Shown here: piece after piece, positions 14,401-55,000 of the stretch
How positions within the stretch are numbered: the first letter of the stretch is position 1
Layout of the letters: each line of letters begins with the position of its first letter
DNA from: Mesostigma viride
Lineage: Eukaryota; Streptophyta; Mesostigmatophyceae; Mesostigmatales; Mesostigmataceae
NCBI GenBank assembly: GCA_009746045.1
Contig: RPFO01000246.1
Coordinates: 2,764,758 to 2,828,757 of the forward strand
Direction: 5' to 3'
Length of the DNA: 64,000 bases
Notes under the pieces: model-generated
Seen by the model: the letters and a program-made list of their open reading frames with translations, nothing else
What the model was told of the DNA's origin: nothing
Databases searched by the model: none
Position numbers and translations under genes: made by a program

Positions 14401-17400
14401 TTGTGACTGATTCAGAGGCGCCGGTTTGTGATAGTGTAATTGCCCCTCTCTTGGAGCCTGGGGGGGGGTAGGGGCATACCCAGGGTTCATCCACGACCCC
14501 CATGAGCTGTAGCCATAAGCAAGATGATGCCAGCTAGCTCAGGCTAGTAGCTAATACTATTCCACCCTGAAGTAAGCAATGAAAATTTAGAGAACCAACA
14601 AGAAATGGCTTTAATTTCAGTCCAATGCGACCTATTTTTTTACAAGAATTGAGTAAGTTATGATGTTTCTTGCGAGTAAGGGTATCTGAAATGCGGCGAT
14701 CTTTGCCCGAAAATACGGTTACGGAGGGCATCCAAAAATTTCAGTGTTTTGCGAAATTTCTCGATATTTTGCATACCGGGAAACACAATGACAAATCTGC
14801 ATTGCAGGGAAGCATCACCGCTCGAGCAAGGCAAATCAGCCTGGCCCAGGCATTTCATGCAGTTAGAGCAGCATAGTAGTAAGGCAGGGAGAGCCTCGAA
14901 ATTCAGGTGCAGGCTAGCTTGGGATGGGCAGCCCGAAACCGAGTCCATATGTGCCCGCCTGCCTCCTTTCTAAATTACCCCGTTGTGCAGGTGACCATTG
15001 TTTGCACCTGTTTGTTAGCCTATGCCTTCTGCAGCAGGGCCATGATACGTTACAAGGACAGGAAGGGTAAGCAGCCTTTCCTAGTTTTACCAGCAGGCGC
15101 TGCTCTTGCCTCCACAGAGCACTGTAGTGGACGTATCATACTGCCAAATAGCGTGGGGTCATATGTCGAATAGGAAACCTTGGCATTGGGCCCACCCTAG
15201 CGAATGATCCCATGGCGCGCAACTGCCTAGTACAGGTATGATGCTGCAATAATGCAAGGACGGGATCATTTGTGAAGTGGCATGCATGTGTGACGCGCGG
15301 CAACAGCAGTTTTTCTCTTCTCTTCTCTTTTAGTGTATCTCTGTCTGCGTCTATTTATAATTCCCCTCCGTCTTCCTTCCCCCCGTCCTCTGTCTCGCAA
15401 GAGCCAGCACGCTCTCACATACCATACATGTAGCCTCGCAAGAGCACCCCCACAAGCTGTTTCAGTTCTTACCATCCACTGATGGCACCGCTGCTAGATC
15501 TTGAACTTAAACAATCCTCTCCTGCTATGTTCCTTCCCCCCCCTGCCTACACGCTGTTGGTGTTGCACGCACGCACATGGCCTGGCCCCTGGCTGTGGAT
15601 GTGCTTGGGGTTTGTATCCCCCTGGGCTTGTTTCTCCCTCATGCAGGGAGAACGCCAAGCTGTCGCGCTATGGCAATATCGTGAGCGCGCGCAACCTGAT
15701 GCTTATGGAGCTGAAGCAGCTTATCGAGGCCAACCCGCAGTTCCGCGGCAAGCTCGAGTTCCCCTCGCTCAAGATCTCGCGCCTGCGCACGCTTATCAAC
15801 CAGAGGTGGGTGGGCGGGCGCACGCTCATCGACCAGGGGTGGGTGGGTGGGTGGGTGGGTTGGGGAGTGGAAGGTGGGTCCTCACACTCATCAACCAGAG
15901 GTGGGTTGGGGAAGGATGGGCGCACGCTCATCAACCAGGGGTGGGTTGCAGTGGGGCGGGTGGGGAGGGCTCACGCTCATCAACCAATGGTGAGCTTTGG
16001 GGGCAGGTGGGTGGTGGTGGCACACTTATCATCAACCAGCGGTAGCTTGCGGGGTTGGGGGTTTAGGGCATGCTAATCAACCAGAGGTAGCTTGGCGGGG
16101 GTGGTGGGGGGGGCACACTTATCAACCGGAGGCGGGGTGGGGGTGGGGAGAAGGGGGGCGCACACTTATCAACCAGAGGCGGGGGGGGCGGGGGGGGCGG
16201 GGGCACTTATCAAGCATAGGTGACTTGGGGGGATTTGGGGGGGGTTGGGGGGGAACGCTAATCAACCAGAGGTGGGTTGGGTTGCGTGGGGGGTTGGCAA
16301 GCCATCAACCAGAGTGGGTTGGGGGGAAGGGGGTGTGGGCAGAGTTTGTTTGTTTATGTTTGGGGGGGGAGGGAGAAGGGCGGCTGGAAAATACTCTTGT
16401 CACGTGCAAAGGGAAGGGGGTGTTTGGTTGGGGCAAATGGCCCATACAAGTCTGCCCATTTTAAGCCACTAGGTGGGTCTTTGCCTGCTCGAGGCACAAT
16501 CATTCACCATGTGTATGTTGTGGCCATCGGCCATGCATGCATTGAAGCAACACTGTGCCAAAAAACACTAAAAATGGGCTCATTCTAAAGTGAAGTGTCA
16601 GTGGGTTTATGCCATTAAGTGCACGTTCCAGAAACTTAGCTGACTGGTCATTTGCTCGTCTCATTGTTTAGCAATGCCTTTAAACCCGGTCAGTACCCAG
16701 GTGTTGCGCTGTTCATTGGGTTGTTGATTATGGCATGTTTGCTGTTGTGGAGGTGAACAGAGGCAGAACGTATGCAGATTGCTTGCAACTTCACCAAATC
16801 GTAGAACAAGGACCACCAACGAGGGAGGGTCGTTTTCAAATAGTTATAGACAAAGTTATAGCGCGTGCCTGGTGAAAATGCTTAAGGGTTCTGAAAATGG
16901 AGGAAAAGAAATGGAAAAGCTAAATGCTTGCTTCTAAGTTTGCTTATCGCAGTAACTATAGCATGCTGGCCAACTGGGGTTCATTGCCAAAAAACTTAAT
17001 TACATGCTTATAAAATGGCAGCGTAATCAGGGCACAATATGGAGGGCACTGTTACCAGAGCAAAGTTGTTCAGACTCATGTATCTAGGGCTATATGTTTG
17101 GGGCCGTGTCCTCTGGCGTCATTTCGGCACAGACATATTGCCAACGGACTTTGATGACCATACCCTTGTAATGCCCAGCTTTATTAACCCTCACAGTGTT
17201 TCCCTAACGGCCTGTCCCCATGCATCCGCATTGAGTTCTCCTTCTCCTTCCCTCGACCATGCTCCACGTTCCCACTCCGCCTGGATCAGAACGGTGCACC
17301 ATGCTGCCCATGTATCCACCCAGCTGATCCTCTTGGCCCTCGGCGGTCCACCTCTCGCCCAGTCCGCCTGCTCCCCCTCTTCCTTGGCCCATGCTTACCC

Positions 17401-20400
17401 GCCATGCTTTGTGCGCTCTCATCGGCCAATGAGACTTGCCTCCACCCACCCAACCCGCTAGATATGCGACTTCAGGCTCATCTCATCCCGTACGCTGTGC
17501 CCCTTGTGCCCCTTGGTGAATGCGCCTGCTTGTCTGCGTGCGCCAGCCTCAACTGGCAGCACCAGCTGTGCCAGAACCCCAAGCCCAGCCCCGACATCAC
17601 CACGCTGTTCGAGGACCACACGTGTGGGCCAGCGCTCGAACCGCTACCCTTGGCCGGTGCTGGGGCAGGGATTGGGCCCCAGGGTGGGGGGATGGCCGGC
17701 GGCGGGGGTGTGCCTGGGGGCGGAGGCATGAACATTGCGGGGCCAACTGGCCAATATGTGCAGTCAGCCGGATATAACAAAGGAAGCGGTGGCGGTGGTC
17801 AGGTAATTCTAGTGGCTATCCATGCCTCTTCACTGATAATACTTAATTCTATTTGCCCCCTGGGTGCAGGCTCAAATTTGTAGTGAGCTGCTTGCTGCCG
17901 CTGAACTGTGTCGGTCGGCTCTCCACTCACTGAGAGGGTGTCTGTATTGGGCCAGTGCATGCCACAAACCCATGCCATGTAAAGCGGGACACGTTCGGTG
18001 CTGGCTGTCATCGGAGTGGCGGCACGGGGCAGCGGGTGATAGGGTGTGGTCCGTGGCGATGGTGATGCGTGGCGATTTGTGGGATGTTCGTCACCATGAG
18101 TGCAGGTGCAGGGTGCCATGGCCGCGCATGCAAGGTGCTGTGGCCATGGCACGTGTGCCCACATGAATGGCTGGCGTGTTGAAGGCGTTATTGGACAGCG
18201 CTTGATGAGCAGACGCTGCTGAGGTCAGGGGCCGTGAATGGTGACCGTGTGTCCGATTTCCTGGCATTTTCGGTGGTTGTTCGGCCAACAGAAGTACGGT
18301 TTAAAAGACCACGGCAGGCTACCCAGCCATGGTAGCGACGTTGATGGGTGCGAGATCTGCAGGGGCCTTAACCAAGGAAGCGCTGTTAGGGTTATGCTGC
18401 ACCGGCGCCTCTTCCAGTGTCCTGCGGATGGGCTCTAGATGTGTCCCCATGGCCAGGGGGCTGGTGCACAGGGAGGCCAAAACCTGTTTTCACCGTGCCA
18501 ATGTTGACATCATGTTTACATGCTTGCATGCCCGCACACTTCATGCCGCTTCGCGCGTGTATTACCGTGCGATTATGGCACCATGGCACAAGTAATGGCC
18601 TAGCAAGCGCTCCCTGTAGAGCTAACCGAGGTGCGACCTTTCCTCTCCTCCCATCTGCCGCCTATGCATCCCATCTGTCGCCGGTGCCTCTCACGGGCTG
18701 TCATCTGCTATGCAGGTGGGTGCGTCGGGCTATGGCCAGGGGCAACAGATGAAAGGTTTCGGGGGTGGAGGGGCCCCACAGACGCTGCCTCCGTCAGCAC
18801 AGATGGCCCCCCAGGCACAGGTCGCGCGGGGTCCCTGGCCAAATGCCCCGCCCGGGCCAGCAGGCCATGCTCCATCCGTGCCCCCCATGGCGGCTGTGGC
18901 ACCGAAGGCACCACCGCTGGGGGCTCCTCAAGCTGCGGCTGGAGGCACGGGTGCGTGTTAGCGGAGGCCCATGTTCCCATTCCAGAAGTTGAGGAATCGA
19001 GGGTTGGCCCGCGCGAAAGCTAGTGTTTTGTTTGGTGGCAGGATATGGGATGAGCACGTGCGCGCATGCTTGGGTTTGGTGGCAGGGAAATCCATGGGTC
19101 CGCGTGACTTGTGTAGTGGCAGCAAGTCCGAGCCACTGCGGGGGCAACGTTGCCTTTTGCTCTGATGACTGCATGCGATAGTCCGGGATGTTCCATGGAT
19201 ATTTTCCGCGCCTGCATCTTCAAACAGTGCTTGTTGCGTGACATGCATTTTGCAGCATTGGATGTCCACTGCATTATCTGGTGAAGCTGTATCTGGGTAA
19301 GCTGCTCCTGCAGCTTTGCCTTGGCCATGCGCCTATTTTGAGCTCCGCTACTACTTGTTTCTCACTCTCAACTCTTGGTGTGGTTCTTGGTTCACCCTTT
19401 ACACCCCCAGCTCACGCCCCCACCCACCCTCCACTCTTCAAACATTGGCGCTCTTTATCTGTTATATTCCCCACTGCGCTGCAATATGTTTTCCCGATAT
19501 AATGCACCCGACTCCTCTTGGTCGCTCAACCCGGCTGCCTTGTCCAATTTGCCTTGTCCACCACATTCGCCTTCCCTCAGGCGCTGCCGCCCCCACGACC
19601 AAAGCAAGCTCGGGCAGTAAGCGGCACCGCGCACACTCGCCGGCGTTGGCAGGGCAGGGGCCGCCCCCAGCGCAGGCAGGGGGGGTGGCCAAGCCGCTCT
19701 CGCCCTCGCAGCAGCAAAGTGGCGGCAGCTCCGGCCCAAGCCTCGGCAGCAACAACGTGGGCCAAGGGTCGGCCCAGAACCACGCGGGGGCGCTGCATAA
19801 GCGGGCACGGACGTCCCTGGAAGAGGAGGTGGGCCCCTGCGCCATGTCGCTGCTGCGACGCGCTTTCTGTGTGCTTCCCTTTACGTCACCTGTGCATACT
19901 GCGGTGGATACCATCCCTCCATTCAGTTATTCCTGCATGCCCTTAGTCATCCCTAGCCTAGAGCCCTTAGTCATTCCTACATGCCCTAAGTTATTCCTTT
20001 ATGCCCTGGGTCGTTCACACGGGGTTCCAACCCTCTAGCACGTATTGTAGCAAGCAATCTGCCTACCCCCCTAGGTTCGCTTGGCACATCAGCATGCGCA
20101 TCGGGCAGTGCGGTGTGCGACTCGGCTCTGTGCTGCAGTGCCCAGGCCCCTAGCTTTATTTGGTTTTTGATGAGGTGGCACCGACTTATCCGTCGTTGTA
20201 AAAACCACCATCTGGGATGTCCCTGGGATCCCAGGTGCATATATTGCTACGTTTCTTGCATGTACGCTATTCATCGTGGGCAATCATGTGACTGTGGGCA
20301 GATGAATGGGTGGGTGGCTGCAGAGGGCATGTGACAAATATCTAGCTCGGTGAAACAGTCACGCACTGCATGCGTTGCTCAATGGCATGGTTGCTTGTTA

Positions 20401-23400
20401 TCTGTTTACAGCTATCTGCTGCCACCATGTCACTTGGTTAGCCATCAACAAGGCATCCCGCGCTCTAAGTTACAACTCTCTATTTACGGTTTGTGCTACC
20501 GATTGCATGGGCACATCCCCACTTGGGTGATTTTTTCTGTAGTATATACTTTGCTGTTGGAAACATTCACAAGGATCGGAAGAGCTGTTGGAAACATTCG
20601 CTCACCCGTGCTGCTGCTGTTCACGCCTTGCATAACCGTACATCTTGCACTAGTCGCTTGCACACTCACGTTCGACATGCGTCATCGTTCACACACACGT
20701 CTCCCCTCCCCCTCCCCTCCCCCTCCCCCTCCCCCTCCCCCTCCCCCTCCCCCTCCCCCTCCCCTCCCCTCCCCCTCCCCTCCCCCTCCCCTCCCTCCCC
20801 CCTCCCCCTCCCCTCCCTCCCCCTCCCCCCCCCCTCCCCCTCCCTCCCCTCCCCCTCCCCCTCCCCCTCCCCCTCCCCCTCCCCCTCCCTCCCCCTCCCC
20901 CCCTCCCCCTCCCCTCCCTCCCCCTCCCTCCCCCTCCCTCCCCCTCCCCCTCCCTCCCCTCCCCCTCCCCCTCCCTCCCTCCCCCTCCCCCTCCCCCTCC
21001 CCCTCCCCTCCCCCTCCCCCTCCCCCTCCCCTCCCCTCCCTCCCCTCCCCCTCCCCTCCCTCCCCCTCCCCTCCCCTCCCCCTCCCTCCCCCTCCCCTCC
21101 CCCTCCCCTCCCCCTCCCCTCCCCCTCCCCCTCCCCCTCCCCCCTCCCCCCCCTCCCCCGGCCCGGCCCGGCCCTTCCCCATTCAACTCCCCCTCTCTGC
21201 ACCCCTGAATAACGCGGTGTGGCCTGTGTGGGGCCAGCCAAGCGGAGGCTTTGCAGGTGCCGCCGCCTCGTCTGCTGTGGATGTGGAGGACCTACCCCGC
21301 AAGGTGGTGGCCACGCTGCAGCCAGGTGTCGCGTTCTCGTCGATCGATTTCCACCCGCAGGACCCCAAGCTGCTGCTGGGTGCGTCGCCTGCTGGTTTTG
21401 TTGTTTTCTGCGTACCGTGGAGCCCCAGGGCAACCAGACCGAATCTCTATGACTATATATACTATATTATCATTCTCTATGAATATATATACGATATGAC
21501 AGATATATTCATGACTATGTATATGTCACGGCTATCCTTCCATCTCACTGTAAACGAAAGATGTTCAGAGAATCCTCTTTGTCATGACTTCCTCTTTGTT
21601 TGCGTTCCTTTGTCTTTTCCCTCGCCCCTCTTTCTTGCCTGCCAACTCGGCATGCCTGCAGGTCCGTAGGCAAGCCAATCCTTGTACACCGTTGCATTTG
21701 ATATTTGTCGGGTGTGCCATGCCAGTGGCTCCCCTTGTGCTGTCAGTCTAAGTCTGTCGTGCTTTGTTTGGTCTGTTCCTGTGCGGCACGTGTCCGCTGT
21801 GTGCTGGTTGCAGCCGGCACGGCTACGGGTGACATCATGCTGTGGGACATCGGGCTGTGTGAGAAGCTGTACGAGAAGAGGGAGCCGGTACGCGCACATT
21901 TACAATTGTTTGCACAATGTTAGCTGTGCTCCTGCTCTGCTTGTCAACACTCGCGCGTGCTGGGAGACGGAACCCATGCGGGCGTGGCCGTGGGGACCCC
22001 ATGGCAAGAAGCACAGGGAGAGGGAGTGAGCATGGGAAATGGCGAGGAGAGGTATTTGCGCGCTGGTTCTTGGGAGCCCACAGCATTCGTTGCGCGTGGG
22101 AACATCAGCGATCGTGCCCACAAGGTGTTTCCATGGCGCAGAGGGAGACAGTGAATATAACGTACAAACAAACGTGTTCCATGGCGCAGAGGGGGACAGT
22201 GAATATAACGTACAAACAAACGTGTTCCATGGCGCAGAGGGAGACAGTGAATATAACGTACAAACAAACGTGTTCCATGGCGCAGAGGGAGACAGTGAAT
22301 ATAACGTACAAACAAACGTGTTCCATGGCGCAGAGGGGGACAGTGAATATAACGTACAAACAAACGTGTTCCATGGCGCAGAGGGGACAGTGAATATAAA
22401 GTACAAACAAACGTGTTCCATGGCGCAGAGGGAGACAGTGAATATAACGTACAAACAAACGTGTTCCATGGCGCAGAGGGAGACAGTGAATATAACGTAC
22501 AAACAAACGTGTTCCATGGCGCAGAGGGGGACAGTGAATATAACGTACAAACAAACGTGTTCCATGGCGCAGAGGGAGACAGTGAATATAACGTACAAAC
22601 AAACGTGTTCCATGGCGCAGAGGGGGACAGTGAATATAACGTACAAACAAACGTGTTCCATGGCGCAGAGGGGGACAGTGAATATAACGTACAAACAAAC
22701 GTGTTCCATGGCGCAGAGGGGGACAGTGAATATAACGTACAAACAAACGTGTTCCATGGCGCAGAGGGAGACAGTGAATATAACGTACAAACAAACGTGT
22801 TCCATGGCGCAGAGGGAGACAGTGAATATAACGTACAAACAAACGTGTTCCATGGCGCAGAGGGGGACAGTGAATATAACGTACAAACAAACGTGTTCCA
22901 TGGCGCAGAGGGAGACAGTGAATATAACGTACAAACAAACGTGTTCCATGGCGCAGAGGGAGACAGTGAATATAACGTACAAACAAACGTGTTCCATGGC
23001 GCAGAGGGGGACAGTGAATATAAAGTACAAACAAACGTGTTCCATGGCGCAGAGGGAGACAGTGAATATAAAGTACAAACAAACGTGTTCCATGGCGCAG
23101 AGGGAGACAGTGAATATAACGTACAAACAAACATGTTCCATGGCGCAGAGGGAGACAGTGAATATAACGTACAAACAAACGTGTTCCATGGCGCAGAGGG
23201 AGACAGTGAATATAACGTACAAACAAACGTGTTCCATGGCGCAGAGGGGGACAGTGAATATAACGTACAAACAAACATGTTCCATGGCGCAGAGGGGGAC
23301 AGTGAATATAACGTACAAACAAGCCGCACAGGTGGTGGCCCGCTTCCTGAGGACCGAGTCTTATTGACTATCTGGCGGCCTTACTGGCTAGATGGTAACA

Positions 23401-26400
23401 ATCAGAGCCATGCAAGTCAACCACCCCTCTGGTGGTTGGAGTTCTCTCCGTTAGACCCAAGTGCCCATCTGCTGTGTGGCCTTTGCAGCCGTGCCAATCC
23501 CCAGTTTTCCGTGTCCGCTCCCAACGGCAGCTACGGCATCGAGCATGCTGCATATATGCTGGGCATGTTGAGAACGCAGGCACAAGGCAGGATGGGTAGA
23601 GCAGGCCACCTGGCGAGGGCTTGAGAGGGCATGGCCCAGTAGTGGATGTTTACACATCACTATAACATAAGTAATTGGATATTGCTCACACATAATTAGT
23701 ACGTAAGTAAATGGCTATTACTTACACATACCCACGCGCACATGCACACCCGGACACACACGCACAACTTTCAGTCACATTCCTCCACTCCTTGTTCGCA
23801 TGTCCTTACCTTTTTCTTTACCCCCTCCCCAGTTCCCCTTCTCTATCTCAGTCACACCTCACAGCTTCATTCGCCTCCATGTTCTTTATCCCCTTTCCCC
23901 ACCCTGCCCCCCTCCGCAGGTTCCGCCCAGTTTACGCCTGCCACCCGGCACCTCGATGTCGGTCAACCGCGTGGTGTGGAATTCGACCGCGCAGTTCTTT
24001 GGCGTCGCCTTCCTACAGAACATGGTCCACATCTACGCGCACCACGGCAAGGGGGACGTGCAGGAGCATGTCAAGGTGAGTGCATTGCAAGGTTGAGCGA
24101 ATGCCCATCTTGAGGGCATGGCAAGGCGAGCGGATGTCAAGGTTGAGGGCATGGCCAGGTTGAGGGCATGCCAAGGTGAGTACAAGCGGTTCGCCGACCG
24201 GATGGCAAAGCAACCCCTGAAAGTGGTTGGTCCCTCTTTTTCTAGGCACACAGGCAGTAGGGAAGGTCTGGGTGGGAGGTCACTGTGCGCCATCGGCTGC
24301 AATTATGGAACTTGACCATTGTAGATGATGGGTAATCTGCGCGAAGACTGGGGATTGAGAATCCATGGGCGGGCGATCGTGATGGGCCGCGTGTGGGAAA
24401 GTTACCAATGGAGGTGAAACCTGTGGACATGAAGGCCCATGGGATTGGAATGGAAAGACATGGAATGAAGGCAACAGGGGAGCTGGTGCATGCCGCTGAT
24501 GCATCCCCACTGCTGCATGCTGTGCTTGTGCACGCCATGCACGCCATGGTATGACATTCGATGCCACCAGTGCCGTGGAAGTGTGTGGCCCCTTCTGACA
24601 ATCCCTTTCCTTCTACTGTGCATGCACTGTTGATTGTGAGAAGCAAGGAGCTTCATTGGCTCGATGCCCACCCTGTAGTCACTGCATCAGCACTGCCCTT
24701 CTGTCACGCATACTCCTACGTGACGGCGCAGCCTCCATGGTCTCTGTGCCCCTTCGTTACATGCATGCCCACTTGCCACGCCTCCCTCACCACCGGTGAA
24801 ATGGTGGTGTCGGGCCTGGATAATATTCACCCCCCTTTGCCCACCCATCGCCCACCCATATGTTGTGTGCCCGCCCCTTTGCCACACATCGGCCATGTCC
24901 CACTTGCCACGCGCGCGCCAGGTGGAGGCCCACGACGGCGCAGTCAACGACCTGGCGTTCACGTACCCCGCACAGCGCCTGAGCTTCATCACGTGCGGCG
25001 ACGACAAGACGATCAAAGTGTGGGACCTGGAGACAGGCGCGCAGCAGCTGGTGTTTGAGGGTCACGAGGGGCCCGTCTACTGTGTGTGCCCCCACCGCAA
25101 GGAGAACATCCAGGTGAGTGCGTGGCTCAAGAACATTTGATTTTTTTTTTGTTATTTAGAGAGAGCGCGGCTCAGGAACATTTGATAACATTTTTTGCTA
25201 TCTAGTAAGAGCGTGGCTCCGGAACATTAGATAACCTTCTTTGTTATTTAGTTTCTCACAGGATGGTATGTGAGAAATTATACAGATGTGAGTGAGGGGG
25301 GCTAGCATTTGGTACCTGCTCCCTATAGTACATGTTTTTCAGAGATCATCTAGGTGTAAGTGTTGCTCGTGTCTTTTCATCATCTACTCTTATCACATGA
25401 GGGTTTTTGAGAGAGCTTCCAGATGCGGCTCATCGCCTGTCGTCGGTGGGCCTGGAATAGGTTTATTCCACGAGGGTTTTCGAGAGAACCGTCAAGAGCG
25501 GAGGGGGCAGGCATTTGCAATAGAATACAACCTGTTTGGAATATTCAGGTGCGGGCGAGGGGGGCGCGCAGTGGGCGCCTGCTCTGTGTGTCACAGGGCG
25601 GTTCTATTAGAATTCAGCCAGGTGCAAGGGAGGGGGCGTCAACTACCCTGTTGGGTGGTCAATGCACTTTACATCACATGACTAATTCGGTTCAGACATG
25701 TAGGTGTGAGGGAGCGGGTTGTAGGTTGATTGGATATCCTAACCCCGTTTGATTATATTACCGTTAGACATTGTTGTTAGGAATTGTTCAACATGCCGGC
25801 GAGCAGATGCCTGCTAGTGGTGTCACTAGACGGCTCGGGTAGAGAATACGTGGGTAGCGGGAGGGGGGTGCGTGCTCTATTTGCCACAGAATGGTCGGTC
25901 CGAAGGATACAGGTGCAAGTGCTGGTAGGTCGGCGGATGCAGGCGTACCGTTGCCAGAATTGCATGATACCCTGGCCAAAGCACTGCCCCTACGTCTTCC
26001 CCTCCCCTTGGCTCCCCTTTTCTCACCTTCCTAATCACAACACTTCACCCTTCCCCTGTTGCTGCCCTATCAACCCTCCCCCACGTATACCCTTCTTCCC
26101 CGATCCACATACCAAACACTGCCCACCATTACCCCTTTGCCATACTCTTTGGCGGCCGCCGCATCTTTTCTACCGTGCTTTATCATCTCCTCCCTTAAGT
26201 TACCTCTTGTACGGCTGCCGTTCATCTTCTCCACGGCATTTTATGAACTTGTCTCCTCCTCCCCTTATCCCCTTGTCCCGTCCTCCCCTTTGCCAACCTA
26301 TTTCACCATAGTTCATCTTCTCGACCGCGCGCGACGGCAAGATCATGGCGTGGCTGTACGACAACCTGGGCTCGCGCATCGACTACCTGGCGCCTTGCCG

Positions 26401-29400
26401 CTGGTGCACAACGATGCAGTACAGTGCGGACGGCATGCGCCTCTTCTCGTGCGGGACCAGCCAGGACGGGGAGTCGAGCCTGGTCGAGTGGAACGAGAGC
26501 GAGGGCTCCATCAAGCAGCGATACAAGGGGTTTTAGTGCGTGCACGCGTAGTGTCCATCAAGCAGCGACACAAGGGGTTTTAGTGCGTGCACGCATAGTA
26601 TCCATCAAGCAGCGATACAAGGGGTTTTAGTGCGTGCACGCATAGTGTCCATCAAGCAGCGATACAAGGGGTTTTAGTGCGTGCACGCATAGTGTCCATC
26701 AAGCAGCGACACAAGGGGCTTTAGTGCGTGCACGCATAGTATCCATCAAGCAGCGATACAAGGGGTTTTAGTGCGTGCACGCATAGTGTCCATCAAGCAG
26801 CGATACAAGGGGTTTTAGTGCGTGCACGCATAGTGTCCATCAAGCAGCGATACAAGGGGTTTTAGTGCGTGCACGCATAGTGTCCATCAAGCAGCGATAC
26901 AAGGGGTTTTAGTGCGTGCACGCAGAGTGTCCATCAAGCAGCGACACAAGGGGTTTTAGTGCGTGCACACATAGTGTCCATCAAGCAGCGACACAAGGGG
27001 CTTTAGTGCGTGCACACATAGTGTCCAACAAGCAGCGACACAAGGGGTTTTAGTGCGTGCACGCATCGTGTCCATCAAGCAGCGATACAAGGGGTTTTAG
27101 TGCGTGCACGCATAGTGTCCATCAAGCAGCGACACAAGGGGTTTTAGTGCGTGCACGCATCGTGTCCATCAAGCAGCGATACAAGGGGTTTTAGTGCGTG
27201 CACGCATCGTGTCCATCAAGCAGCGATACAAGGGGTTTTAGTGCGTGCACGCATAGTGTCCATCAAGCAGCGATACAAGGGGTTTTAGTGCGTGCACGCA
27301 TAGTGTCCATCAAGCAGCGACACAAGGGGTTTTAGTGCGTGCAAGCATAGTGTCCATCAAGCAGCACTGTAAGGGCTTCCAGCACGTGCACATATCAGCC
27401 TTGCATAATCGCAAAGGGTTTAATCAAGCAGCAATACGAGGGGGTTCGTGCACTTAATTTGCGTCGCTAGCCGGATCCCCGCGCCATAGAGGTATAAAAC
27501 ATGGCAGTGACATGATGACTGGCCTGATGGGTCACAAGGTAGCTGACACGATGACTGAGATGGTGGCTAGACCAACCAATGCAATATGTGTGGTTTACTT
27601 GTAATAAACATTCATATATTATCACTAATATGATCGCCACTGTTTGTGGGTGCACTTTTTGTTTGTGGGTGCGCACCTGGTCATCCCTCCCCCCCCCTCC
27701 CCGCACGCGTCCCCCCCCTCAGCAACCCCTCCCATTGCATCGCGCGCTTCCACACGCTGCTCAACCGCTACCTGGTGGCCGGCGACGCGGGGCAGGTCAA
27801 GTTCTGGCACATGGACCGAATCGACCCTGTGCTCACCATCGACGCCGAGGGGGGGCTGGGCTCGTGCCCGCTCGCCGTGTTCAACTGCAAGGGCACTCTG
27901 CTGGCCGTCACGGGGGAGACGAGCATCAAGATCCTCGCGAACGCGGAGGGAGAGCGCGATATGTGGCGCTCCAGCAGCAACGGGCCGCTCGGCATTGCAG
28001 GGTCTATGCCCTTCAACCCGGCCGCCGCCGGCAGGGCGGTGGATGGTGTCACCCGTATTCCCGCGGTAGCCTCCCGCCCAAACATACTCGCCGCCGCGGC
28101 ATCAGTGTCCGGCCCCGCAACCTCGCCCAGTTCCGGTGGTGGCGGTGGTGGCGGCAGCGGCAGTGGCTGCGGCAGCGGCAGCGGTGGTGGGCGTAGCATC
28201 TCGAGTGGCCACTCCCCCCCCCGCATCAAGCACGAGCCCCATGCCGAGGAGTCCAAGGGGGCAAGGGGCTCAGTGGGCAGCCAGCCATCCTTCGTGCCGC
28301 TCGCTGGAAGCTCGGCCGACCACCCGGGGAGTGGTGGTGAGGGTTCCCAGCCAGCGGGGGGCAGCGGCGGCACTGGTGGCGCTGTGGTGGCCGCCAGTGC
28401 GCCAGGGACGCAGCCAACCAGCGGGTCCGGGTCCTCCCAGGGGCGCGCCCAGGCGCCCGCGGGGGTTGGGACCGGGGAGGCTGACTCTGCAGGCACGGGC
28501 CGCGCGGCGGCGGACGACTCGGGGCCTAGGGGAGGCACCGGCGATGCCACGGACGCTGTGATGGAGCGCGGCAGCCAGGTTACTGCTGGCGACCGACAAG
28601 CGGCCCTCCCACCCAAGCCGGCAGCCAGCGACGTGGAAGACAAGGCTGCGCCAGCCTCAGGCACCTTGGGCGCGCAGGGTGCTGCGGCCGCTGTTGGGGA
28701 GGATCGGACGGTTGCGGACGGTGCATCTGAGTTGCAGGGTAAAGCTGTCAAGACGGAGCCGGCTGCGAGTACCCAGGGTGCAGCCGCGGCAGGTGCGCCC
28801 GCTACGGAACCGAGCACGGGCATGGCCTCATCTGCCAGGGGTGAGGCTGCCTCGCAGAGACTCCCAGGGATAGCAACCGCGGATGCTACCCGAGGCGGCG
28901 AGGAGGGTGAGATGCTCGTGGCGGGTGGCAGCACGCAAGGGCCCCCCCCTTGCCCCGTCCCCACATTAATTTTTTCGTCGGAGTCGGTGCTGCGCGAGGT
29001 GCTACCGCAGACGGCCCCGGGGGCGTCGGCCGCGCGGCTGCTGTTCACGCACGCGGGCACTGCGCTGTGTGTGGTCAGCGGGGGGTACTCAACCCGCCTG
29101 TGGAAGCTCAGGGAGGCGTCCTGGGGGGGCAAGGTGCGGATGGAACCAAGAAACCATGGGTATGGGCTAAGGGACAGGTTTAGGTCGACTGATAGTAGGG
29201 TGAGGGCATGCTATGAAAGGCAGGACCAGTGTTACTGGTATCGGGGGCAAGATACGATATGAGAAGCAGGACTAGTTCCATTAATAGCTACTATAGCTAG
29301 TACAGCTACTGTAGCCACTCCTGCCAGCTAGGCTTGGTGGGGGCTGGTTCCATCACTCTTGGGGGGCGAGGAGGGGGGTGGAGGGCGAGCGCACTAAATG

Positions 29401-32400
29401 CATGCTGGAGACGGGGGCGTGGGGCCACAGCGTTTTAGAGGTGTTTGGGGCCATGGGGTATGGAGGAAGTTGCGACGATGGTGCGATGATGCAGTGCCCT
29501 CTATGGTGGGTGAGCAAGGAGCTGCTGTAATTTTAGGAGACATGGATGGAGCCTTTCTACTGTGATTGCTTGTGTGATGCTGTGTGCTATTACGTGCCCC
29601 CTCTCACACATCTGATCTAAGCCCACCTGACATGACATGTCGCACCCTGCCGCACAACATGACCCACACGCGCGCACGCATGCACACACAATATACACAC
29701 TCGCTGAAACGAAATTCCAACAACAAATAAAAACTAACCTATTTTTTCGTGAGTGTACGATGCAAATGTGAACGTGCCAGGTGCCTCACCTGGTCCCCGA
29801 GGCCTATGCGCCCACCCCTAATGCTGCCATGATCAACATGCCGGCGCCCGCGTCCATGCCGGCTGCTGGGAACCCCACTCAGTCCGGCCCCTCTTACTCC
29901 GCACCCTGTCCGCCACCCCCCCGGCACCCCTGTGGCGCGGTCTCCACCAATGACCTGTATGTGCTCTCGGCCGTGGGCGGCAAGATCAGCCTCTTCAACC
30001 TGACAACCTTCAAGTCGATGGCCACCTTCCTCGAGCCACCGCCCGCGGCCAGCTTCCTATGCTTCCACCCACGGGACAACAATATCATGGCCATCGGTCT
30101 GGACGACGGCCGCGTCCAGATCTACGACGTCCGGCTGGACTCGGTGCGCTCCTGCGTGAGCGGCGTGCCGGGCGTGAGCAGCAACACCGCCGCAGGCGCC
30201 CCGGGGGCAGCGAGCCTCTCACTGGTGCGGAATGGGGGCGGGATGCCCCACCCTGGGGAAGATGCGGTGGGGGACCAAGCCGGCGCGGTCGTAAAGTCCG
30301 GGGAGAAGGACAGCGCAGGCACTGCCACATCCCTCATGGATGTGCAGCACCCGCACAGGATAACGGGGCTGGCGTTCTCAACCGCCCTAGAGATGCTGGT
30401 CACCGCGACCGCAAGCGGACACGTGGCGACCTGGGGCATGGCCAGCTGGAACCACGTGGGCCGCATGTACGTGGGCGATGGCGAGGCGGCGGGGGGTGGG
30501 GATGCGGCCCATGGGGTGGGCGACGAGGGCGCAGTGAGGGTGGCGCAGCAGGGCTGCGCCGCGGGGGGCGGGGCCCGGAACCATTCGGTCTCGTCGAGCA
30601 TGGGAACAGGGGTCCAGTTTGCGAGCGACCTGTGCCGGCTGCTGGTGGTGAGGGAGCGGTCGGTGGCTGTCTACCAGCTGGCGCCGACGTTCCAGCGCGA
30701 GTGCCAGGTAGGAGAAGAGGGCACACGGGAGTGTGGTTGGTAGGCATGTTCTGGCACGGTAGGGGTGGCAGGGCAAGCGCAGGGAGCAGATAGGGAGCGC
30801 GCGGTGGCCACATGGCGTTGTAGTGTAGGTAGGCACGCTTTAGCGGGATGGACATGTAGGGTAAGAAGCGTTCTGTCCGTCTCTACAGCTATTACGCTAT
30901 CGCTAAGCATGGATGCAGCGCAGGGTGTTGGCCACGTCAAGGGCCGACACTCAGCATTTGGGGGATAGGCCCTGGGCCGGTTCATGAGGCACTATCTTAC
31001 TACCCAGGTAGTGTTCGATTAGATGGAGCATGGACCAGCCAGCATGGCCCTTGGAGCAGGGTCACTGCCATGTGTTGGAAATTGAGGATTATGGCAGCAA
31101 CTCGAGCGATGGAAGAACAGTGCATGAGAGGTCCTGGGTTCGAATCCAGTGGTTTATGGTACCAAAGACTTCTCGGTCGGCGGCTTGTGAACCTGCCCAC
31201 GTCCTCCGATGTTTGTCCCATCCATGGTTTTGTTTGGACTTGTGCCAGCAGTGCATGGGGCAAGGCCATGCCTGGTTTTGTATCATGATTACGCGGCGGA
31301 GGGTGGCAGCGACCATGATGCTGGGCTCATGCATTGTTTGCGCTTGCCGGCGTAAGTCGCGAGCATGCGGGCCAGTGACTTGCCCAATTTTAAAAACAAC
31401 ATGGTGACGCCGGCATGATTCTGTGTCTTCCTTTCGCTCCGCTGTTGCCTCTCTGGTTTCTTTCCCCTCCTCTCTGTGGCCCATCACCATCCACTCCCAC
31501 TGCCCAATCCCTTTGCCCCCCAACACCCACCCGTTTACTGACACACTCCCGCCCCCCTGCCCTTTCTCCCCCGGCTCTTTCTCTCGGCGGCAGTGGGGGC
31601 CCGGCGAGGGCGTGGACATGCGCGTGATGGCCGCGTGCTTCAACAGCGGGAGCACGCTTGTGCTGGCCATGCTGGCGCAGGGAGACTGTCTCATGCTGTC
31701 CGCCGCCACGCTCAACCCTGTGCTGCAGCTGCGCGCAGCCGCGCTGATTCCGCGGCCAGCTCCCTCGCCCGTGGCAACCTTTCCCGATGTATCAGCATTC
31801 ATCCCCACGTCCATCGCGGCACACCCCAAGCGGCCCGGCACATTCGCCATCGGCTACATGTCCGGGGTGGTGCAGGTGGGTGGCCCATCGGTGGGGTGGG
31901 GTGGGGTGGGGTGGGGTGGGGTGGGGTGGGGGTTCTGGCTCAGGGGTGGGGGCGGGGCATTGTCTCAGGGATGGTGTCAGTGGGTGCGGTGAAGAGGAAT
32001 GTAGGGGGAGCAAGTGGTGTAGTCTTGCTGCTGCGCCTACCCCCCCATGGGCAGTGGACACCGCGTGGTCCGGCCACAATATGTTCGGGCTGCGCAGGCA
32101 TGGCCATGATTGCGCAGCTGCTGGTTGTGATAGTGGGGGCCTACGATTCAATGCGTTCTGTACTCTTAATGTCAAGTGGGCATGTGTGATGATGGAAGGG
32201 CACGAGGCTACCCATAGCAGGACCCTTTCCCTGGGGTGTCTTCCACTTTTTACCTCACCAAATGTGTATGGCTTGCAAACACCTTACTTGTGGACTGTGA
32301 AGTGGCTGTCTTGTCTTAGAAGCGGCAAGTCCAGATGGATTAGTGCAGTATTGTTGTAAACCGTTATGTGGTTGGTATTGTCATCCTGGCCCTTAGTCTC

Positions 32401-43000: not shown

Positions 43001-43632
43001 GCTGCCGGCGAGCACAAGAGGCCCACACCACCTTGGCCCGGCGCGTCGCCGCCACCATAGTGGAACCGCCAGCCTGCACGCAGGTCGTCGACCAGCAGAC
43101 CGTTGACCGCGTGCTGAGGGTCAACGGTGCGTCGGTGCTCCTGGACTCCAAGAACAGCGATCTTGTTGTCGGCGCACAGGGCGATCAGCTCGTCGACGCG
43201 TTGGCGTGCTGGGGTGCCGCCGCTCGTAGAAGGATCTGCAGGGAGGGTGCGCACGTTAAAACTTGCAATGCCAAGAATGGGCCGTTGCCCTATTAGCGGG
43301 GGGGTGGGGGTGGGGGTGGGGGTGGAGAAGGGTAGTGCTGGAGGTGGGGGTGGGGGTGGGGGGGGGGGAGGGGGAGGGTGGCGATTGGGGTTAATGCTTG
43401 TCAACGCATGGAGGCTTTCTTTCAGGACGGATATGCGTCGTCTCCGTCCTGGCTGGGGTCGCCGGCGTGTCGACTGGGCCTCATCCCGCTCAAGGCGGGC
43501 TAGGAGGCGTGTAAGGCTGGTAAATTGGCGGGAAGGTTGACCGTGGCGTGCCTGGCGACCTTGCATCCTGATCATGCTCGCACGGTGCGACATGAGGATG
43601 GAAAGGGGCTTGTTTATAAAGGCTGTGCCCAA
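40050..43632 (-). pseudogene. LINE ORF2 (endonuclease-reverse transcriptase), multiply frameshifted
   Basis: This is the same protein as in copy A but with an intact N-terminus, including a basic region and a polyproline run. The endonuclease segment is in frame (GVQEHRR, LLDANATL, SDHRL). Compared with copy A it has a 2-base loss near 42283, a 1-base loss near 41808, an insertion near 40380-40410 and a 1-base loss near 40138. The reverse transcriptase core (41739-40480) is uninterrupted, with FIKAFDSV, GVWQGCVLSPY and YADDTT. It starts about 36 bp after the ORF1 stop. Confidence 0.93.
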
Positions 43633-43667
43633 AGCCTATTGTACCGCGAGGCCGCGAGGGTGTGCCC

Positions 43668-46290: not shown

Positions 46291-46295
46291 TATGA

Positions 46296-46355: not shown

Positions 46356-46402
46356 ACTGGTAAGGGCAAGCCGCGGGGGTAATTAAGGCCGGCCCCTCCC
46401 CC

Positions 46403-47747: not shown

Positions 47748-48068
47748 CTGGTACCTAGGCTCAGGACCATAGTAAGCAGTGCCACATAGGTTGCAGCCAG
47801 CTAGGCCGGGCATTGAGAGGCGTGAACGAATACATACAATGCACGTGGCGGTCTTGGCCATCCCGAAAACCTTCCGTACGTATGAAGATCATGTACAGCT
47901 TAATGATTCTAGCATGAGACAGCATGATAGCCCGTGGGCGTGGCGCGCCGGCAGATGCCAAAGCAGCTGTATGGTGTGCGGGGGGGTAACCCATAGCTTG
48001 TTGTCAGGGTACACGTCCTAAGCCCCTCAGTGGTCAGTGAACCTTCGAACGGCTTCTCGGTGCCTTGC

Positions 48069-48305
48069 TTATGGCGGGGGAACGTGTGCGCGACGCACAT
48101 ACAGCTCGCGACGTGCATGCTGCTGGGCGGGGGTCAGGGACGTCGTCATCCAGCGACCAGGGGGCGGGCTGCAGGCTGATGGTGGACTGCAGGCTAAATT
48201 GCGCTGCCGAATTAAAAACCGCGCCTTATCCTCGAGGGAGTCAGAGGTGTGCAGCACTGACGGGGAAACCTTGTCCCGCCGGATAGGGGACGACGCCGTG
48301 CCCAT
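48069..48305 (-). mobile_element. LINE ORF1 C-terminal relic
   Basis: The frame reads LEDKARFLIRQRN and then RWMTTSLTPAQQHARREL, which resembles the L-L/T-x-AQ motif of the other ORF1 ends here. It is old and isolated, and could be a fourth family. Confidence 0.5.
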
Positions 48306-49081: not shown

Positions 49082-52000
49082 CTGGCGTGGCCCCAGGCTG
49101 TTAGCCACCGGCTCGTCATAAATGGCACGGAAGCCCAGCGGCTCCAGCACCCGCTGGTACCTGCACATTTCCGGCCGGGTAATAATCATCGCAGACAGCG
49201 AGACGCCCATGTTTGCAGAGTTTGCGCGTTCGCAGAACGATGAATCAGGGAGAAAGCTTTCCTCTGAGGAGTGTAGTTGCATAGCAGCATTCATGGTACG
49301 ACACAGGGCGCAACCGATGTGGTGTATACAGGAGGTATACATGAGGTATAAAGGAAGTATATAGGAGGTATATAGGAAAACAACCCTCAGACCGGCATCC
49401 ACTTGTGAAAAAATCCATTCTCCCCACCCAGCAGAGACATGCCAGAGGACCATGATATCTATATACACCAGTCGACTCATCTATGTCTATATCTATGAGA
49501 CGGACCGTGGGAGTCAAGCAACGGGCTGGACATTACCACCCTGTCAGCGCCGTGGTCACCATTCCTGCGACGTGTGTGCTTGCCAGCTGGCAACCATGCG
49601 CTCATCAGAACGCATTTAACCCCTAACTGGGTTACGTCACGCATGCGGCGACTTGCAAAGATCACGTCATGCATGCCGCACAACGCAGATCTGGCGTTGT
49701 ATGAAAAATACCAGCCAGCGACACCTCCAGGGCATGCTAGCTGGGGCTGTCCCATGTCTTGGATAACTGCTGCACAGAGTGAACACGAATAGCGATAAAC
49801 ATGTCATGCAGCAAGTGCCAAGCATACCACAATCCATGCCCTTGCACATACTCCATGTTCCGCTGGCAAAGTCATCAACTGCGTGAGAATGGTTGTCCAT
49901 TGTTATAATGGGTGCAGAGAGCATGAAAAATGTTCAAGCTGCTATAGCGTGGTTTAGCAGCAAGACTGACAGCCACCAGCTGCCGGCATGGCACGCAGAC
50001 AAAGCGCGCACGTTGACAACAGCAACAGCACCCAGAGAAACGGCCACGGCCGCCAACATGTGACATGCGGCTCCAGTTGAGAGCACACTATAGTTGTACC
50101 CTGATGTTCATAACATGATACTGGGAACATCATAGGACCAAACCAATGGCCCATGAGTGACCAACGACGCCCCTATCAAGTTTGCTGACTTTCATATTCA
50201 TTTCATATTCATTGGGCATCGTTCAACAGGAGACTTACGCTTGAGGGGGCGAGTGGAAGGGAGGCCCGCTATTCGCGTCACCATTCATGGGGGTTATCTG
50301 GTGCAGTGAACAAGAGGGCCGCCCCAGGACAAGAGGGCACAACCAGGGTGCACATGCACGGGTGAGTCTAGCAGACATGGGCTGCGTTTGATCGAGGCGA
50401 CATGTGAATGTAGCGACAGCAAACTCAACTGGGTGAGTTCCAAGTTGCAAGGATGGATCGGTTCAAGCGACACTGAGAGATGGATGAGGCGGCAGCAAAC
50501 TATTGCCTCGGACGACGTGGCTGTGTGGGAATGTAGGAGGTACCAATCAACTCTGCGGCTGTGCTTGCCTGCCGGCAACATGGTGTGGAAAAGCATACGG
50601 ACAAACACCCCGCGAGGCAAGTCTATACCGGCAACACGGCATATGCAACAAGCCATGGCATAGTAGGGTGCATGCCTAACGGCAACATTACATGGGTACA
50701 AGCGCAAGCCCAAACAAACCCTCAGGCCCGTATACTGGGAACGTGGCATGCAATGATCAACCCATGGCATAGAGGGCGCCTGCCTAGCGGGAACATGTGT
50801 GCAACATGCGTGGCGTGGGCCAGCAGGAGTGCGGACAGCCCCCCAAATAAGCCTACCGGGAACATGAGCGTGGCCAGCTTGCCGCTTCCCCGCTTGACCA
50901 TGCGCGCCATGCCTTGCGCCCACTTGGGCCGCCATGCGGGGGGTATGGCGCAGAAGAAGCTGCACCCACGCGCGCAGAGGGAAGCACACAGCATGCCGTT
51001 CACAACGCAGTGGTCCATGACATATTCCGACCGAATAGGCATGTGACAGGGCATGTGCCTCAGGCAACCGCGGATCAGGAAACGACGTCCCTTCACAATG
51101 ACAGAAGTTTGTCCGCTCCAGCATGGACCATGTCAAAATATTTGTTACAAACCCCGTGCCACATGCATGGGCACAGCCGAGTGTGGCCGCCTTGCGACAT
51201 GCCACGTGGCCACACCGGCACACCATGAACCATGGTCGCGCATGTGGTGGTGTCTCGATCCCCTGTGCTCCTCGAACACCACGGCCACATATGTGGCGAT
51301 GCCGCGCCTCTTTTACGCTACGGTGACTCCTCTTACTACAGTGCCTTGAGTAGTGTGTGCCCCTTGAGCATTTGTGCGCTGTAATCGCCACGCCCTATTC
51401 GACAGCACAGATTAAAATTAAATTAAATTAAATTAAATTATAACATGCCTCCGTTGGGAGATCATGTAGCACATATTCCATGATGGATGGGTGGGGTGGA
51501 CGAAGCCGCGTAATCGAACTATCCTAACTCTAAGCTATCTAGTCTAGAAAATCCAAACTACACTACTCATCAAAACGCCTCCTCCTCTTGGGGGGAGGGG
51601 GCTTGCCCACAGGGTCGGGCGTGTGAGCCTTGACAATCTTCTGCCACCGCGTCTTGTCCTGCATGGCAGTCCAAAGACGGGAGAGAGAGTGGGTGCGGTT
51701 CTCAAACTGGGCTGGGACCACTAGGTCGTCCAGCAACATCTGGATGTAGTTCGTGACAGGTTTCCCTACCCTTTTGGGAATGCCCTTGGGGCCAGGCCAG
51801 GTCAGAATGTGTCGCCCTGGCACAGCACAGATACCAAGTACTAATTATAGCAGTTCGTTGTAACAAGCTCAATGTGCCACGGTTATGCACAGGGAGGTGG
51901 GGCAGCCATGGTCTCGTCCGAAAACACAGAAGCTTTTTTTTTTTTTTTTCACTTTTTCCTCCCAAAAAAGTTCACATTAAAAGCCTCTTACGAGGGCGCG

Positions 52001-55000
52001 CGTCTGTGTGGTAGTGATCAAAACTTGTACGGATGAGATCAAATCTATAATTGACCAATAGTGTATACTAGAATACACAAGCATCAGCTTTCTCTGCACT
52101 CTGCACGCGACCTTTCACCTGTACTGCTCCATTGCCCACCATCATCTTGTCCCATCCCCACTCCCTTCCCAAACCATCTACAAAAGAATCGCATCGCTGC
52201 CGACCAGCTGGGGGAGGACACAGGCACATGCAAGGCCAGAGGCAAAAGAAAGGACCACCCTGTAGCCTTGCCGACAAACCAAGGTTGCTTGAGGAATGTC
52301 ACGCCCTTCATGCCGCCCTCCCGGCTTGCCTCCCAGTGCTCAGCAGGGCTTGTCTATCAAATAGCGGTATGCAATGACGAAACATCGCCTCATATAATCC
52401 TAATCAAATACTACCGGGTAGTAGTATCTGAACAAAGAGGTGCCAACACGACATGATGCTGCAGCATACGTGCACATGTCACTGTGCCTGCCTGTTACGA
52501 TGCCGCCGCTGCCTTGTAAAGTCGCTAGTAGCGGGATAGTAACAGCAGCCATGCAGTGACATAACTGTGCACTTTTCACAAGCCATGCATAAGCAACGCA
52601 GAAGGGATGAAGCGCGGCAACACAGCTTGCCAGAGCGGGAGTGCTGGCATCCCGCCACATATGGCATCTAGCGCATGCGTGCACACATGTGCGCCTACTC
52701 ACGTGTAAAAATCAAATACAAAACAAACTTGTCTGCGGGGTCATACTCACGTGTAATCAAACACAAAGTCGAACTTGTCTGCGGGGTCGTACTCGAAAAA
52801 ATCCACCTTCTCGAATGCAACGACGTCGGCTGGGACGCCTGACTCCTCCCTCAACTGTTGGACACAAAAGGGAGGCATGGGGAGAGGGGGTGGGGGAGGC
52901 ATGGAGAGGAGGGGTGGGGGAGGCAAGGGGAGAGGGGGTGGGGATGAGGCCGGGGGAGGGGGGAAGGCATCGCTTCGTTGGAATGGGGGATGCATTCTCC
53001 ACTGTACAACAGTGACCTGATTCTGGATCGGGCAGGAAACACTCCACCCACTCATGCGCAAACGAGGTGGCATCCCCACTCGCCAGCCAGGGTTGTGACT
53101 TCCCGCAGCACCAACAGTTGCCAGCAGCACCAACCGTTGCCAGCAGCAGTAACTGTTGCCAGCAGCACCAACCGTTGCCAGCAGCACCAACAGTTGCCAG
53201 CAGCACCAACCGTTGCCAGCAGCACCAACAGTTGCCAGCAGCACCAACCGATGCCAGCAGCAGTAACTGTTGCCAGCAGCACCAACCGTTGCCAGCAGCA
53301 GTAACTGTTGCCAGCAGCACCAACCGTTGCCAGCAGCAGTAACTGTTGCCAGCAGCACCAACCGTTGCCAGCAGCAGTAACTGTTGCCAGCACAGGGACG
53401 AGAACATAGGCACATGTACAGGGGTTGCTTGAATGCACACTGGGGTTACGCGGTGATGTGTCATCCGTCACGCAGTAGGCAGAACAGCAGGTGTAAACTC
53501 TTTTCTCTCTTCCACTGCCCCCTGCCCACTCGGGCGTCTCTTCTACTGCCCCCTGCCCACTCGGGTGTCTCTTCAACTGCCCCCTGCCCACTCGGGCGTC
53601 TCTTCTACTGCCCCCTGCCCACCCCAGTGTCTCGATTTCACGCCCCCCTCACCAATCCGGTGACTCAACCACCGCCTCCACAAGGTGGCATGCAGTCAAG
53701 GGGAGCGCGGATGATCGCATCCATCCAGGGGAGCGCGGATGAGCGCATCCATGCAGGGGAGCGCGGATGAGCGCATCCATGCAGGGGAGCGCGGATGAGC
53801 GCATCCATCAAGGGGAGCGCGGATGAGCGCATCCATCAAGGGGAGCGCGGATGAGCGCATCGATGGTGGAGACAACCAGCGCAGGCCAGAAACCGGCATC
53901 TATGGTGGAAAACGTTGCAGCATTGTTTGCGAGGGTGAGGTTGCAGCCCTCTTTCGGATGGAAGAAGCTCTGTTGCGGGCCCTACGCCGTGGTTGGAAGG
54001 CAATGCGGCCCAGAGGGAGCCGGAGGGGGGGATACCTCAGAGGGGGGGGCATCGCGTGGACCGCCCATGGTCGCGGGGATATCGCGTGTGAGGCCCTCAG
54101 GAGAGCCTCGCAGGCATGTGACAGCCCCCACAGGACCAAATGTCATGTCCGTGAATAGACCCCCCCTGAATAGAGAACAAGGCTTCTACAAGGCGTGCCT
54201 CGCCTCCTATTCTCCACATCACCACCATCCGTCTCGCCACGACACATCCTGTAAGGACCTAATCACCGCCGTTGGCACACCCGACATCACAGCGTGGAAG
54301 CAGCCTGGTTCTTAAACTATAATCTGTAACCTACAACAAGCATACCGTATAAACATTAATCATAGCACACCCCACAATCACAAGGTCCAAGCAGCCTGGT
54401 CAGTAGCTACATTCTATACCGTAGTGGCCCCAATATCTGTACGCGTAATTATCGTACGAATACTTTTAGGAATTTTTGTTACGTGTACGAGAACTTTTGG
54501 GAATTATTTTTACTGTACGTACGTATAATGTCAGGGTATATTCAAGGGTGCGCGAGTAGTAGGTAGTTCAGTTCAGTTTGACTGAACTGCATGTAGGTAC
54601 TAGGTAGTAGCCATTTAGCTAACTGAATGCCAGCGGGCGGGTATATTGTGATGGTGTATGGGATAAATAAAAAATGCACAGTTCCTCCGGGCGCCGCGCC
54701 ACGGGTAGCTAGGCTTTAAGGTCTGCGCCGCGCTGCGCTGGTGGTACCTAATTTTGAGGTGTACGAGGCCCGGAAGAGGGTTTTTTTGGGCCTGTACGAG
54801 GTCGATTCGTACATAATTACGCGTACAGATATTGGGACCACTACGGTAACCTACAACAAGCATACTCTAAAAAGATAATCAAGACAAATAATAATGATGC
54901 GGCCACTTGCCTGTTTGGCGACTTCAAGGGCAGACACCGAGATGTCCACCGCGAGCACGCTGCGGCCGCCACGCCTGCCCAGCTCTAGCGCCTCCCAACC

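What the first reader, a model, noticed from the sequence alone, without database searches (positions are those of the whole stretch)
15788..52800. Recurrent tandem copies of exon end plus 5' splice site at the start of introns
In TOPLESS introns 4, 10 and 12 and methyltransferase introns 3 and 4, the last 12-45 bp of the exon and the donor are repeated into the intron. Copy number runs from 2 to about 18. The genes are unrelated and on opposite strands, so this is unlikely to be one local accident. It suggests a process, such as slippage or R-loop/donor-linked breaks, that grows introns from the donor while leaving decoy donors behind. I know of no named system that does this.
Basis: seen in the sequence. 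Interest (0 to 1): 0.87.

Follow-up and report, generated by a model that had tools for sequence, protein, structure and literature searches.

The report
Exon-end/donor copies growing algal introns
In the genome this window comes from (very probably the green alga Mesostigma viride), about one in four of the introns sampled carries, near its start, tandem copies of the end of the preceding exon plus its splice site, as if introns lengthen again and again from that one edge.

Summary
All five named introns repeat the exon end and donor into the intron; TOPLESS intron 10 and methyltransferase intron 4 are borderline. The genome (439.9 Mb) fits Mesostigma viride. I tested 82 introns in TOPLESS, a TPMT-like methyltransferase, exportin-7, kinesins and CCT chaperonins. 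A donor copy lies within 1 kb in 22 of 82, an acceptor copy in 6 of 82 (20 donor-only, 4 acceptor-only, p=0.0015); outside the window 19 and 6 of 62. Controls: other genes' introns 0 of 246, reverse complement 0, exon bodies 0 of 82. Counting leftmost copies only, donors score 28%, intron interiors 4.9%, acceptors 8.5%. Copies mostly reach less than 50 bp into the exon (29 of 32 hits). Unit lengths ignore the reading frame, and two kinesin paralogues each homogenised the same array. Single cases are known (human CBS VNTR); I found no description of a donor-biased version across many genes. Best reading: recurrent short tandem duplications across the 5' splice site, harmless while the proximal donor is used, harmful at acceptors. 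A donor-linked mutational process remains possible.

The parts
11426..32720 (+). TOPLESS-like gene, 16 exons, 15 introns, 1605 aa
   Evidence: spliced by hand from junctions, open throughout; Pfam TPR1-like_2nd, zf_topless, LisH_TPL, WD40
15785..16320 (+). TPL intron 4: donor 15805|15806 (AACCAGAG|GTGGGT); about 10-12 degenerate copies of the last about 20 exon bases plus donor, G-rich spacers
24064..24180 (+). TPL intron 10: donor 24075|24076 (ATGTCAAG|GTGAGT); about 7 degenerate 17-bp copies; weaker case
   Evidence: below z 5
25120..25252 (+). TPL intron 11: 46-bp unit x2.9 starting 6 bp after donor 25113|25114; not donor-spanning
26507..27399 (+). TPL intron 12: donor 26535|26536; 47-bp unit (29 exon + 18 intron) x18.3, donor intact in 18 copies, then a degenerate copy
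49082..56116 (-). TPMT-type methyltransferase gene, 6 exons modelled
   Evidence: PF05724, E 4.6e-31
52696..52794 (-). methyltransferase intron 3: donor 52751|52750 (GATTACAC|GTGAGTA); 46-bp unit x2.1, up to 44 exon bp
50560..50870 (-). methyltransferase intron 4: donor 50857|50856 (TGTTCCCG|GTAGGC); loose copies of about 12-15 bp every 50-70 bp (by eye); weaker case
   Evidence: below z 5

Best explanation
The arrays come from recurrent short tandem duplications (spacings about 17 to 200 bp) whose segment straddles the 5' splice site. The exon and proximal donor stay intact and are still used, so the new copy becomes the start of a longer intron. Exon selection keeps the leftmost copy fresh, so duplication repeats there, older copies move downstream and decay, and unequal exchange evens out young arrays. 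Duplications across the 3' splice site are mostly lost, because an upstream acceptor copy would be used first. Shown here: the copies, their donor bias, lack of frame bias, homogenisation within paralogues. Inferred: use of the proximal donor, selection against acceptor duplications, and the duplication chemistry. A modest mutational bias towards the donor is probably needed as well.
For: 22 of 82 donors against 6 of 82 acceptors, controls 0. Leftmost-copy test: donors 20 of 71, interior windows 114 of 2316, acceptors 6 of 71 against 141 of 2316 interior rightmost copies. Detection power for planted copies is about equal for donor and interior windows up to 20% divergence (0.84 against 0.83); beyond that donors are ahead (0.56 against 0.46 at 30%), but the curves include the natural copies, of which donors have more. 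A constant exon copy should therefore give about a 2.2-fold gain at most (my integration); the donor excess stays significant against 2.2 x interior (p 4.5e-5). The intron part of the unit is also duplicated (identity 0.60, shuffled 0.41; exon end 0.82; 19 cases), roughly what one constrained and two free copies would give. Spacing modulo 3 is 0, 1, 2 in 7, 9 and 6 of 22 (my count), no frame bias. Kinesin paralogues C2189 and C1579 share a 70-bp array, each homogenised within its locus and carrying its own exon's synonymous base; at a later donor only C1579 has a copy.
Against: Per window, ignoring copy order, donors (19 of 65) exceed mid-intron windows (121 of 616) only 1.5-fold. Duplication with uniform ends does not predict that strict alignments stop short in the exon: 8-41 bp in 23 main hits, 29 of 32 at 45 bp or less when the matrix-placed donors are added. 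That limit is soft: three reach 46, 47 and 64 bp, and L030_i1 has a further match to exon -69..-25. No RNA evidence shows which donor is used. Acceptor scarcity could be mutational. First copy beat last copy in only 9 of 13 arrays, so polarity is modest.
Confidence: 0.57

Rival explanations
1. A donor-linked mutational process: co-transcriptional events at the 5' splice site (R-loop, polymerase pausing, nicking of the displaced strand) cause staggered breaks and fill-in around the donor, so that a segment from a few tens of bases upstream to some tens or hundreds downstream is duplicated.
For: About 6-fold excess of first copies at donors over intron interior; eight TRF arrays start in the last 45 exon bp and cross the donor in 65 introns (my reading of the table); left edge mostly under 50 bp; GC skew jumps from about 0 in the exon to +0.28 after the donor.
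Against: Arrays do not go with local GC skew or donor strength. Part of the excess follows from exon constraint and splicing tolerance. The left-edge limit has exceptions and old arrays blur their ends.
Confidence: 0.26
2. The copies are kept because they work: repeated exon-end/donor sites act as decoys or U1 landing pads that improve or tune splicing.
For: GT kept in 19 of 22 best copies; all 18 TPL12 donors intact.
Against: Identity of exon end and donor in copies (0.82, 0.80) is what decay would leave; paralogues differ in having a copy; GT lies inside or beside the aligned part, so its retention is biased upward.
Confidence: 0.08
3. Ordinary intronic minisatellites that happen to touch the exon, without any donor bias.
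For: Introns are full of repeats: 121 of 616 mid-intron 50-mers have a copy within the next 400 bp.
Against: Per event (leftmost copy) donors exceed the interior about 6-fold and acceptors hardly do.
Confidence: 0.06
4. Assembly or gene-model artefact.
For: Tandem repeats are prone to assembly error; donors were placed by profile-HMM continuity and a small weight matrix.
Against: The pattern recurs in independent loci on many contigs; protein continuity across the junction fixes the first donor; artefacts would not prefer donors. The published Mesostigma assembly used 113x PacBio and 162x Illumina.
Confidence: 0.03

Closest known systems
Human CBS 31-bp VNTR, c.1444_1467+7(16_21) (PMC2630376, passages seen)
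   Same: By its notation the repeat unit is the last 24 bases of an exon plus the first 7 bases of the intron, 16-21 tandem copies at a donor.
   Different: One gene in one species; here more than a quarter of sampled introns over unrelated genes.
Internal tandem repeats at exon-intron boundaries of human genes in segmental duplications (PMC2812944, abstract and passages seen)
   Same: Variable tandem repeats at exon-intron boundaries altering intron structure; 27 intron modifications reported.
   Different: No donor-versus-acceptor bias or rate over all introns in the passages seen; there repeats may become new introns, here they lengthen existing ones.
[quoted passage not shown] potato RdRp, fission yeast and ATP2A1 cases, PMC4974935, passages seen; Drosophila, PMC2891723, passages seen)
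   Same: Tandem duplication of a segment with a splice motif near an exon edge.
   Different: That model makes a new intron bounded by the two copies; here the copies lie at the 5' side of an existing intron with its own distant acceptor.
Introner elements (recalled)
   Same: Process acting on intron content of many genes.
   Different: No shared sequence: 0 of 426 and 0 of 246 cross-gene comparisons matched.

Membership tests
Exon-intron boundary VNTR (CBS type) | unit contains exon end plus first intron bases | tested here: met
   exon end and donor in the aligned copies of most hits; for TPL12
Exon-intron boundary VNTR (CBS type) | tandem, two or more copies | tested here: met
Exon-intron boundary VNTR (CBS type) | copy number varies between individuals | not testable with these tools
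   one assembly only; two paralogues differ at one donor
Intron gain by tandem duplication (Rogers) | intron bounded by the two copies, acceptor supplied by the second copy | tested here: not met
   donor window against the last 1 kb of long introns: 0 of 8; in the hits the intron continues beyond the copies
Introner elements | same element in many introns | tested here: not met
   0 of 426 and 0 of 246 cross-gene matches of donor windows
R-loop-driven repeat instability | instability goes with G-skew or R-loops | tested here: inconclusive
   skew does not separate hit from non-hit donors; R-loops themselves not testable here

The most novel reading that the evidence does not exclude
This alga has a donor-linked duplication process: each 5' splice site is a mutational source that copies a short segment (usually under 50 exon bases plus adjoining intron) into the intron again and again, so spliceosomal introns lengthen from their 5' edge as a side effect of being transcribed and spliced.
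Probability: 0.26. Interest if true: 0.92.

Novelty: new variant of a known kind. Interest (0 to 1): 0.75.

Why it matters
How introns lengthen is usually told through transposons. Here is a genome where a quarter of the sampled introns carry readable scars of growth at one edge, with the exon as a built-in undamaged reference copy. It makes the mechanism of intron growth, the tolerance of duplicate donors against duplicate acceptors, and any link between splicing or transcription and tandem duplication testable with ordinary annotation, RNA-seq and resequencing.

Tried and rejected
Considered and rejected: introner or transposon origin (no cross-gene similarity); target-site-duplication anatomy (0 of 8 long introns have the donor window repeated in their last 1 kb); intronised coding repeats (protein homology runs straight across the first donor; spacing has no frame bias); a selected 'donor patch' (exon end and intron part of the unit differ about as neutral decay predicts; L039_i1, 0.95 against 0.64, is an outlier); G-skew as cause. 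Ab initio gene calling over-predicted; from it only the exportin-7 gene (Pfam PF25795) was used. Among the unused ab initio exons two donors and one or two acceptors also passed z 5; they are not counted. A PDB sequence search with part of exportin-7 gave nothing. A per-window interior rate (about 19%) at first seemed to explain the donors; it counts every copy of long arrays, and the leftmost-copy test is the fair one. A looser alignment scoring for the left edge ran through unrelated sequence (26 of 32 beyond 45 bp) and I set it aside as uninformative, though for L030_i1 and L037_i1 its scores (91.5 and 77) suggest a real longer copy. Whether the TPL12 unit occurs elsewhere could not be checked: the DNA search did not complete.

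Rows dropped: kinesin pairs 23 of 31 kept (score 5 or more, profile gap within 4 residues; two more pairs gave no junction) and 5 of 7 (two more gave none); CCT 12 of 13 (two more gave none; the dropped one, L050 intron 2, was a donor hit). L032_i3, a hit that had failed the filter, was re-added by me and so sits; one search repeats the main counts without it. Donors placed by weight matrix alone are outside the main count: 3 hits of 12 (4 of 16 skipped as weak) and 5 of 10. Thresholds depend on shuffles: TPL10, MT4, XPO7_15 and the TPL11 and L039 acceptors move across z 5 between runs.
Full report
What is in the window. The + strand carries a TOPLESS-like gene (11426-32720, 15 introns) and the - strand a TPMT-type methyltransferase (56116-49082, 5 introns modelled); both were spliced by hand and are supported by Pfam. 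The window lies in a 439.9-Mb assembly of 2243 contigs. Its size and a plant-type TOPLESS fit Mesostigma viride NIES-296 (441.8 Mb, mean intron 1142 bp; PMC6947507, passages seen).

The observation. In the five named introns the last bases of the exon and the donor recur in the intron. The best is TPL intron 12: 29 exon bases plus 18 intron bases, 18 copies with an intact GTGCGT counting the exon's own, then a decayed one. TPL10 and MT4 are borderline and drop out of the strictest run.

Is it more than these genes? I first took 200 kb of the same contig without knowing its content. It held an exportin-7 gene whose introns show the same thing: for example an exon end of about 40 bp repeated after intron 19's donor, and a roughly 23-bp unit repeated in intron 17. 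I then took 27 stretches at kinesin exons found by profile search (coordinates) and, as a last sample chosen before looking, four stretches of CCT chaperonin genes. Donor copies: TOPLESS 2 of 15, methyltransferase 1 of 5, exportin-7 5 of 22, kinesins 11 of 28, CCT 3 of 12; acceptor copies 0, 0, 1, 4 and 1. In all, 22 of 82 donors and 6 of 82 acceptors; 20 introns donor-only, 4 acceptor-only, sign test p 0.0015. Outside the window, 19 and 6 of 62, p 0.007. Introns in one gene and in paralogues are not fully independent, and 82 introns from five protein families are a sample, not the genome.

Controls. Donor windows against introns of other genes 0 of 246, reverse complements 0 of 82, exon bodies (-110 to -60) 0 of 82; an earlier run gave 0 of 426, 0 of 71 and 0 of 71. 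Method: best local alignment of 40 exon + 10 intron bases to the next 1 kb of intron, against shuffles of the query that keep blocks of two bases; hit = score 26 or more and z above 5.

Donor hot spot or repeats everywhere? Introns here are thick with repeats: 121 of 616 mid-intron 50-mers have a copy within the next 400 bp, against 19 of 65 donors. But long arrays inflate the mid-intron figure, whereas a donor can only be the first copy. Counting leftmost copies only, donors give 20 of 71, interior windows 114 of 2316, acceptors 6 of 71 against 141 of 2316 interior rightmost copies (similar, where the ratio stays between 6 and 8 from score 26 to 50). Because the exon copy does not decay, donor copies stay detectable for longer; from the power curves I estimate at most about 2.2-fold. 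The donor excess is still significant against that (p 4.5e-5). Acceptors have the same advantage and show little excess, so they are either selected against or not a mutational target. Tandem Repeats Finder agrees: among 61 arrays in 65 introns, eight start in the last 45 exon bases and cross the donor, one crosses an acceptor (my reading; the script's own tallies of 9 and 3 include arrays lying wholly in exons).

Anatomy. In strict alignments the copies reach 8-41 bp into the exon in the 23 main hits (median 23; one re-added by hand), although 150 exon bases were offered, and where the spacing is 70 bp or more the exon share never exceeds 0.34 (18 hits; for TPL12, TPL10 and XPO7_17 the spacing spans more than one unit). 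This limit is a tendency, not a wall: with further hits 29 of 32 stop at 45 bp or less, the others at 46, 47 and 64, and L030_i1 has a second match to exon -69..-25, which would raise its share above a half. GT is kept in 19 of 22 best copies, spacing modulo 3 shows no bias, exon end identity is 0.82 and intron-part identity 0.60 against 0.41 for shuffles. First copy beats last in 9 of 13 arrays. Hit and non-hit donors do not differ in GC skew or donor score.

Turnover. Two kinesin paralogues (C2189, C1579) share a 70-bp donor array; within each locus the copies match each other and that locus's exon, including a synonymous base, better than the other locus. At a later donor, placed by weight matrix, only C1579 has a copy (z 10.2; z 1.1 in C2189). 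So arrays are rewritten within the life of these paralogues.

Mechanism. The simplest full account: short tandem duplications straddle the donor; the proximal donor is still used; the copy joins the intron; the exon renews the source; acceptor duplications are lost. Shown: copies, bias, absence of frame bias, turnover. Inferred: donor choice, selection at acceptors, duplication chemistry. The short reach into the exon and the residual excess (about 2-3 fold after correction) are not explained by this account and point to a process tied to the donor.

What is known. The human CBS 31-bp VNTR is c.1444_1467+7, by its notation 24 exon bases plus 7 intron bases, 16-21 copies (PMC2630376, passages). 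Repeats at human exon-intron boundaries are described (PMC2812944, passages), and intron gain by tandem duplication is an established model (PMC4974935, passages; PMC2891723, passages; review PMC3488318, passages). Zhuo et al. 2007 was seen only as a reference. I found no paper describing a donor bias over many introns; the searches were in an open-access library, so a subscription paper could exist. The Mesostigma genome paper has no word beginning 'splic' in its main text.

Noticed in passing
window 1-8100: Tandem array of a roughly 725-bp unit; a marker string recurs 12 times from 45 to 8035.
   Followed up: partly
window 35701-38724 (+) and 40276-43635 (-): Two copies, on opposite strands, of a LINE-like element (endonuclease/reverse-transcriptase-like frames by eye), with short A/T tandem tails nearby; not run against Pfam.
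   Followed up: partly
window 9102, 46296, 58641 and, shorter, 53862 (+): A conserved piece of about 50 bp (AAGGAGACAACCAGCGCAGGCCAGAAATCGGGAGAATCCGGACCAT and variants) occurs at unrelated places; nature unknown.
   Followed up: no
window 54911|54910 (-): Methyltransferase intron 2 uses a GC donor (CCAAACAG|GCAAGTGG) in the gene model.
   Followed up: no
donor copies in 23 introns: The exon base just before the copied segment is C or T in 18 of 23 (12 C, 6 T, 3 A, 2 G) while exon C+T is about 0.49; partly an alignment-edge effect, unexplained.
   Followed up: partly
65 introns: Strong strand asymmetry: G over C just after donors (+0.28) and C over G before acceptors (-0.36).
   Followed up: partly
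L034, L035, L036: Acceptor-side copies are rarer but can be long (17-59 exon bp) and lie 117-409 bp upstream.
   Followed up: partly
window 57343-58182 (+): Intronless gene resembling peptide deformylase (by eye; 279 codons), beside very intron-rich neighbours.
   Followed up: no
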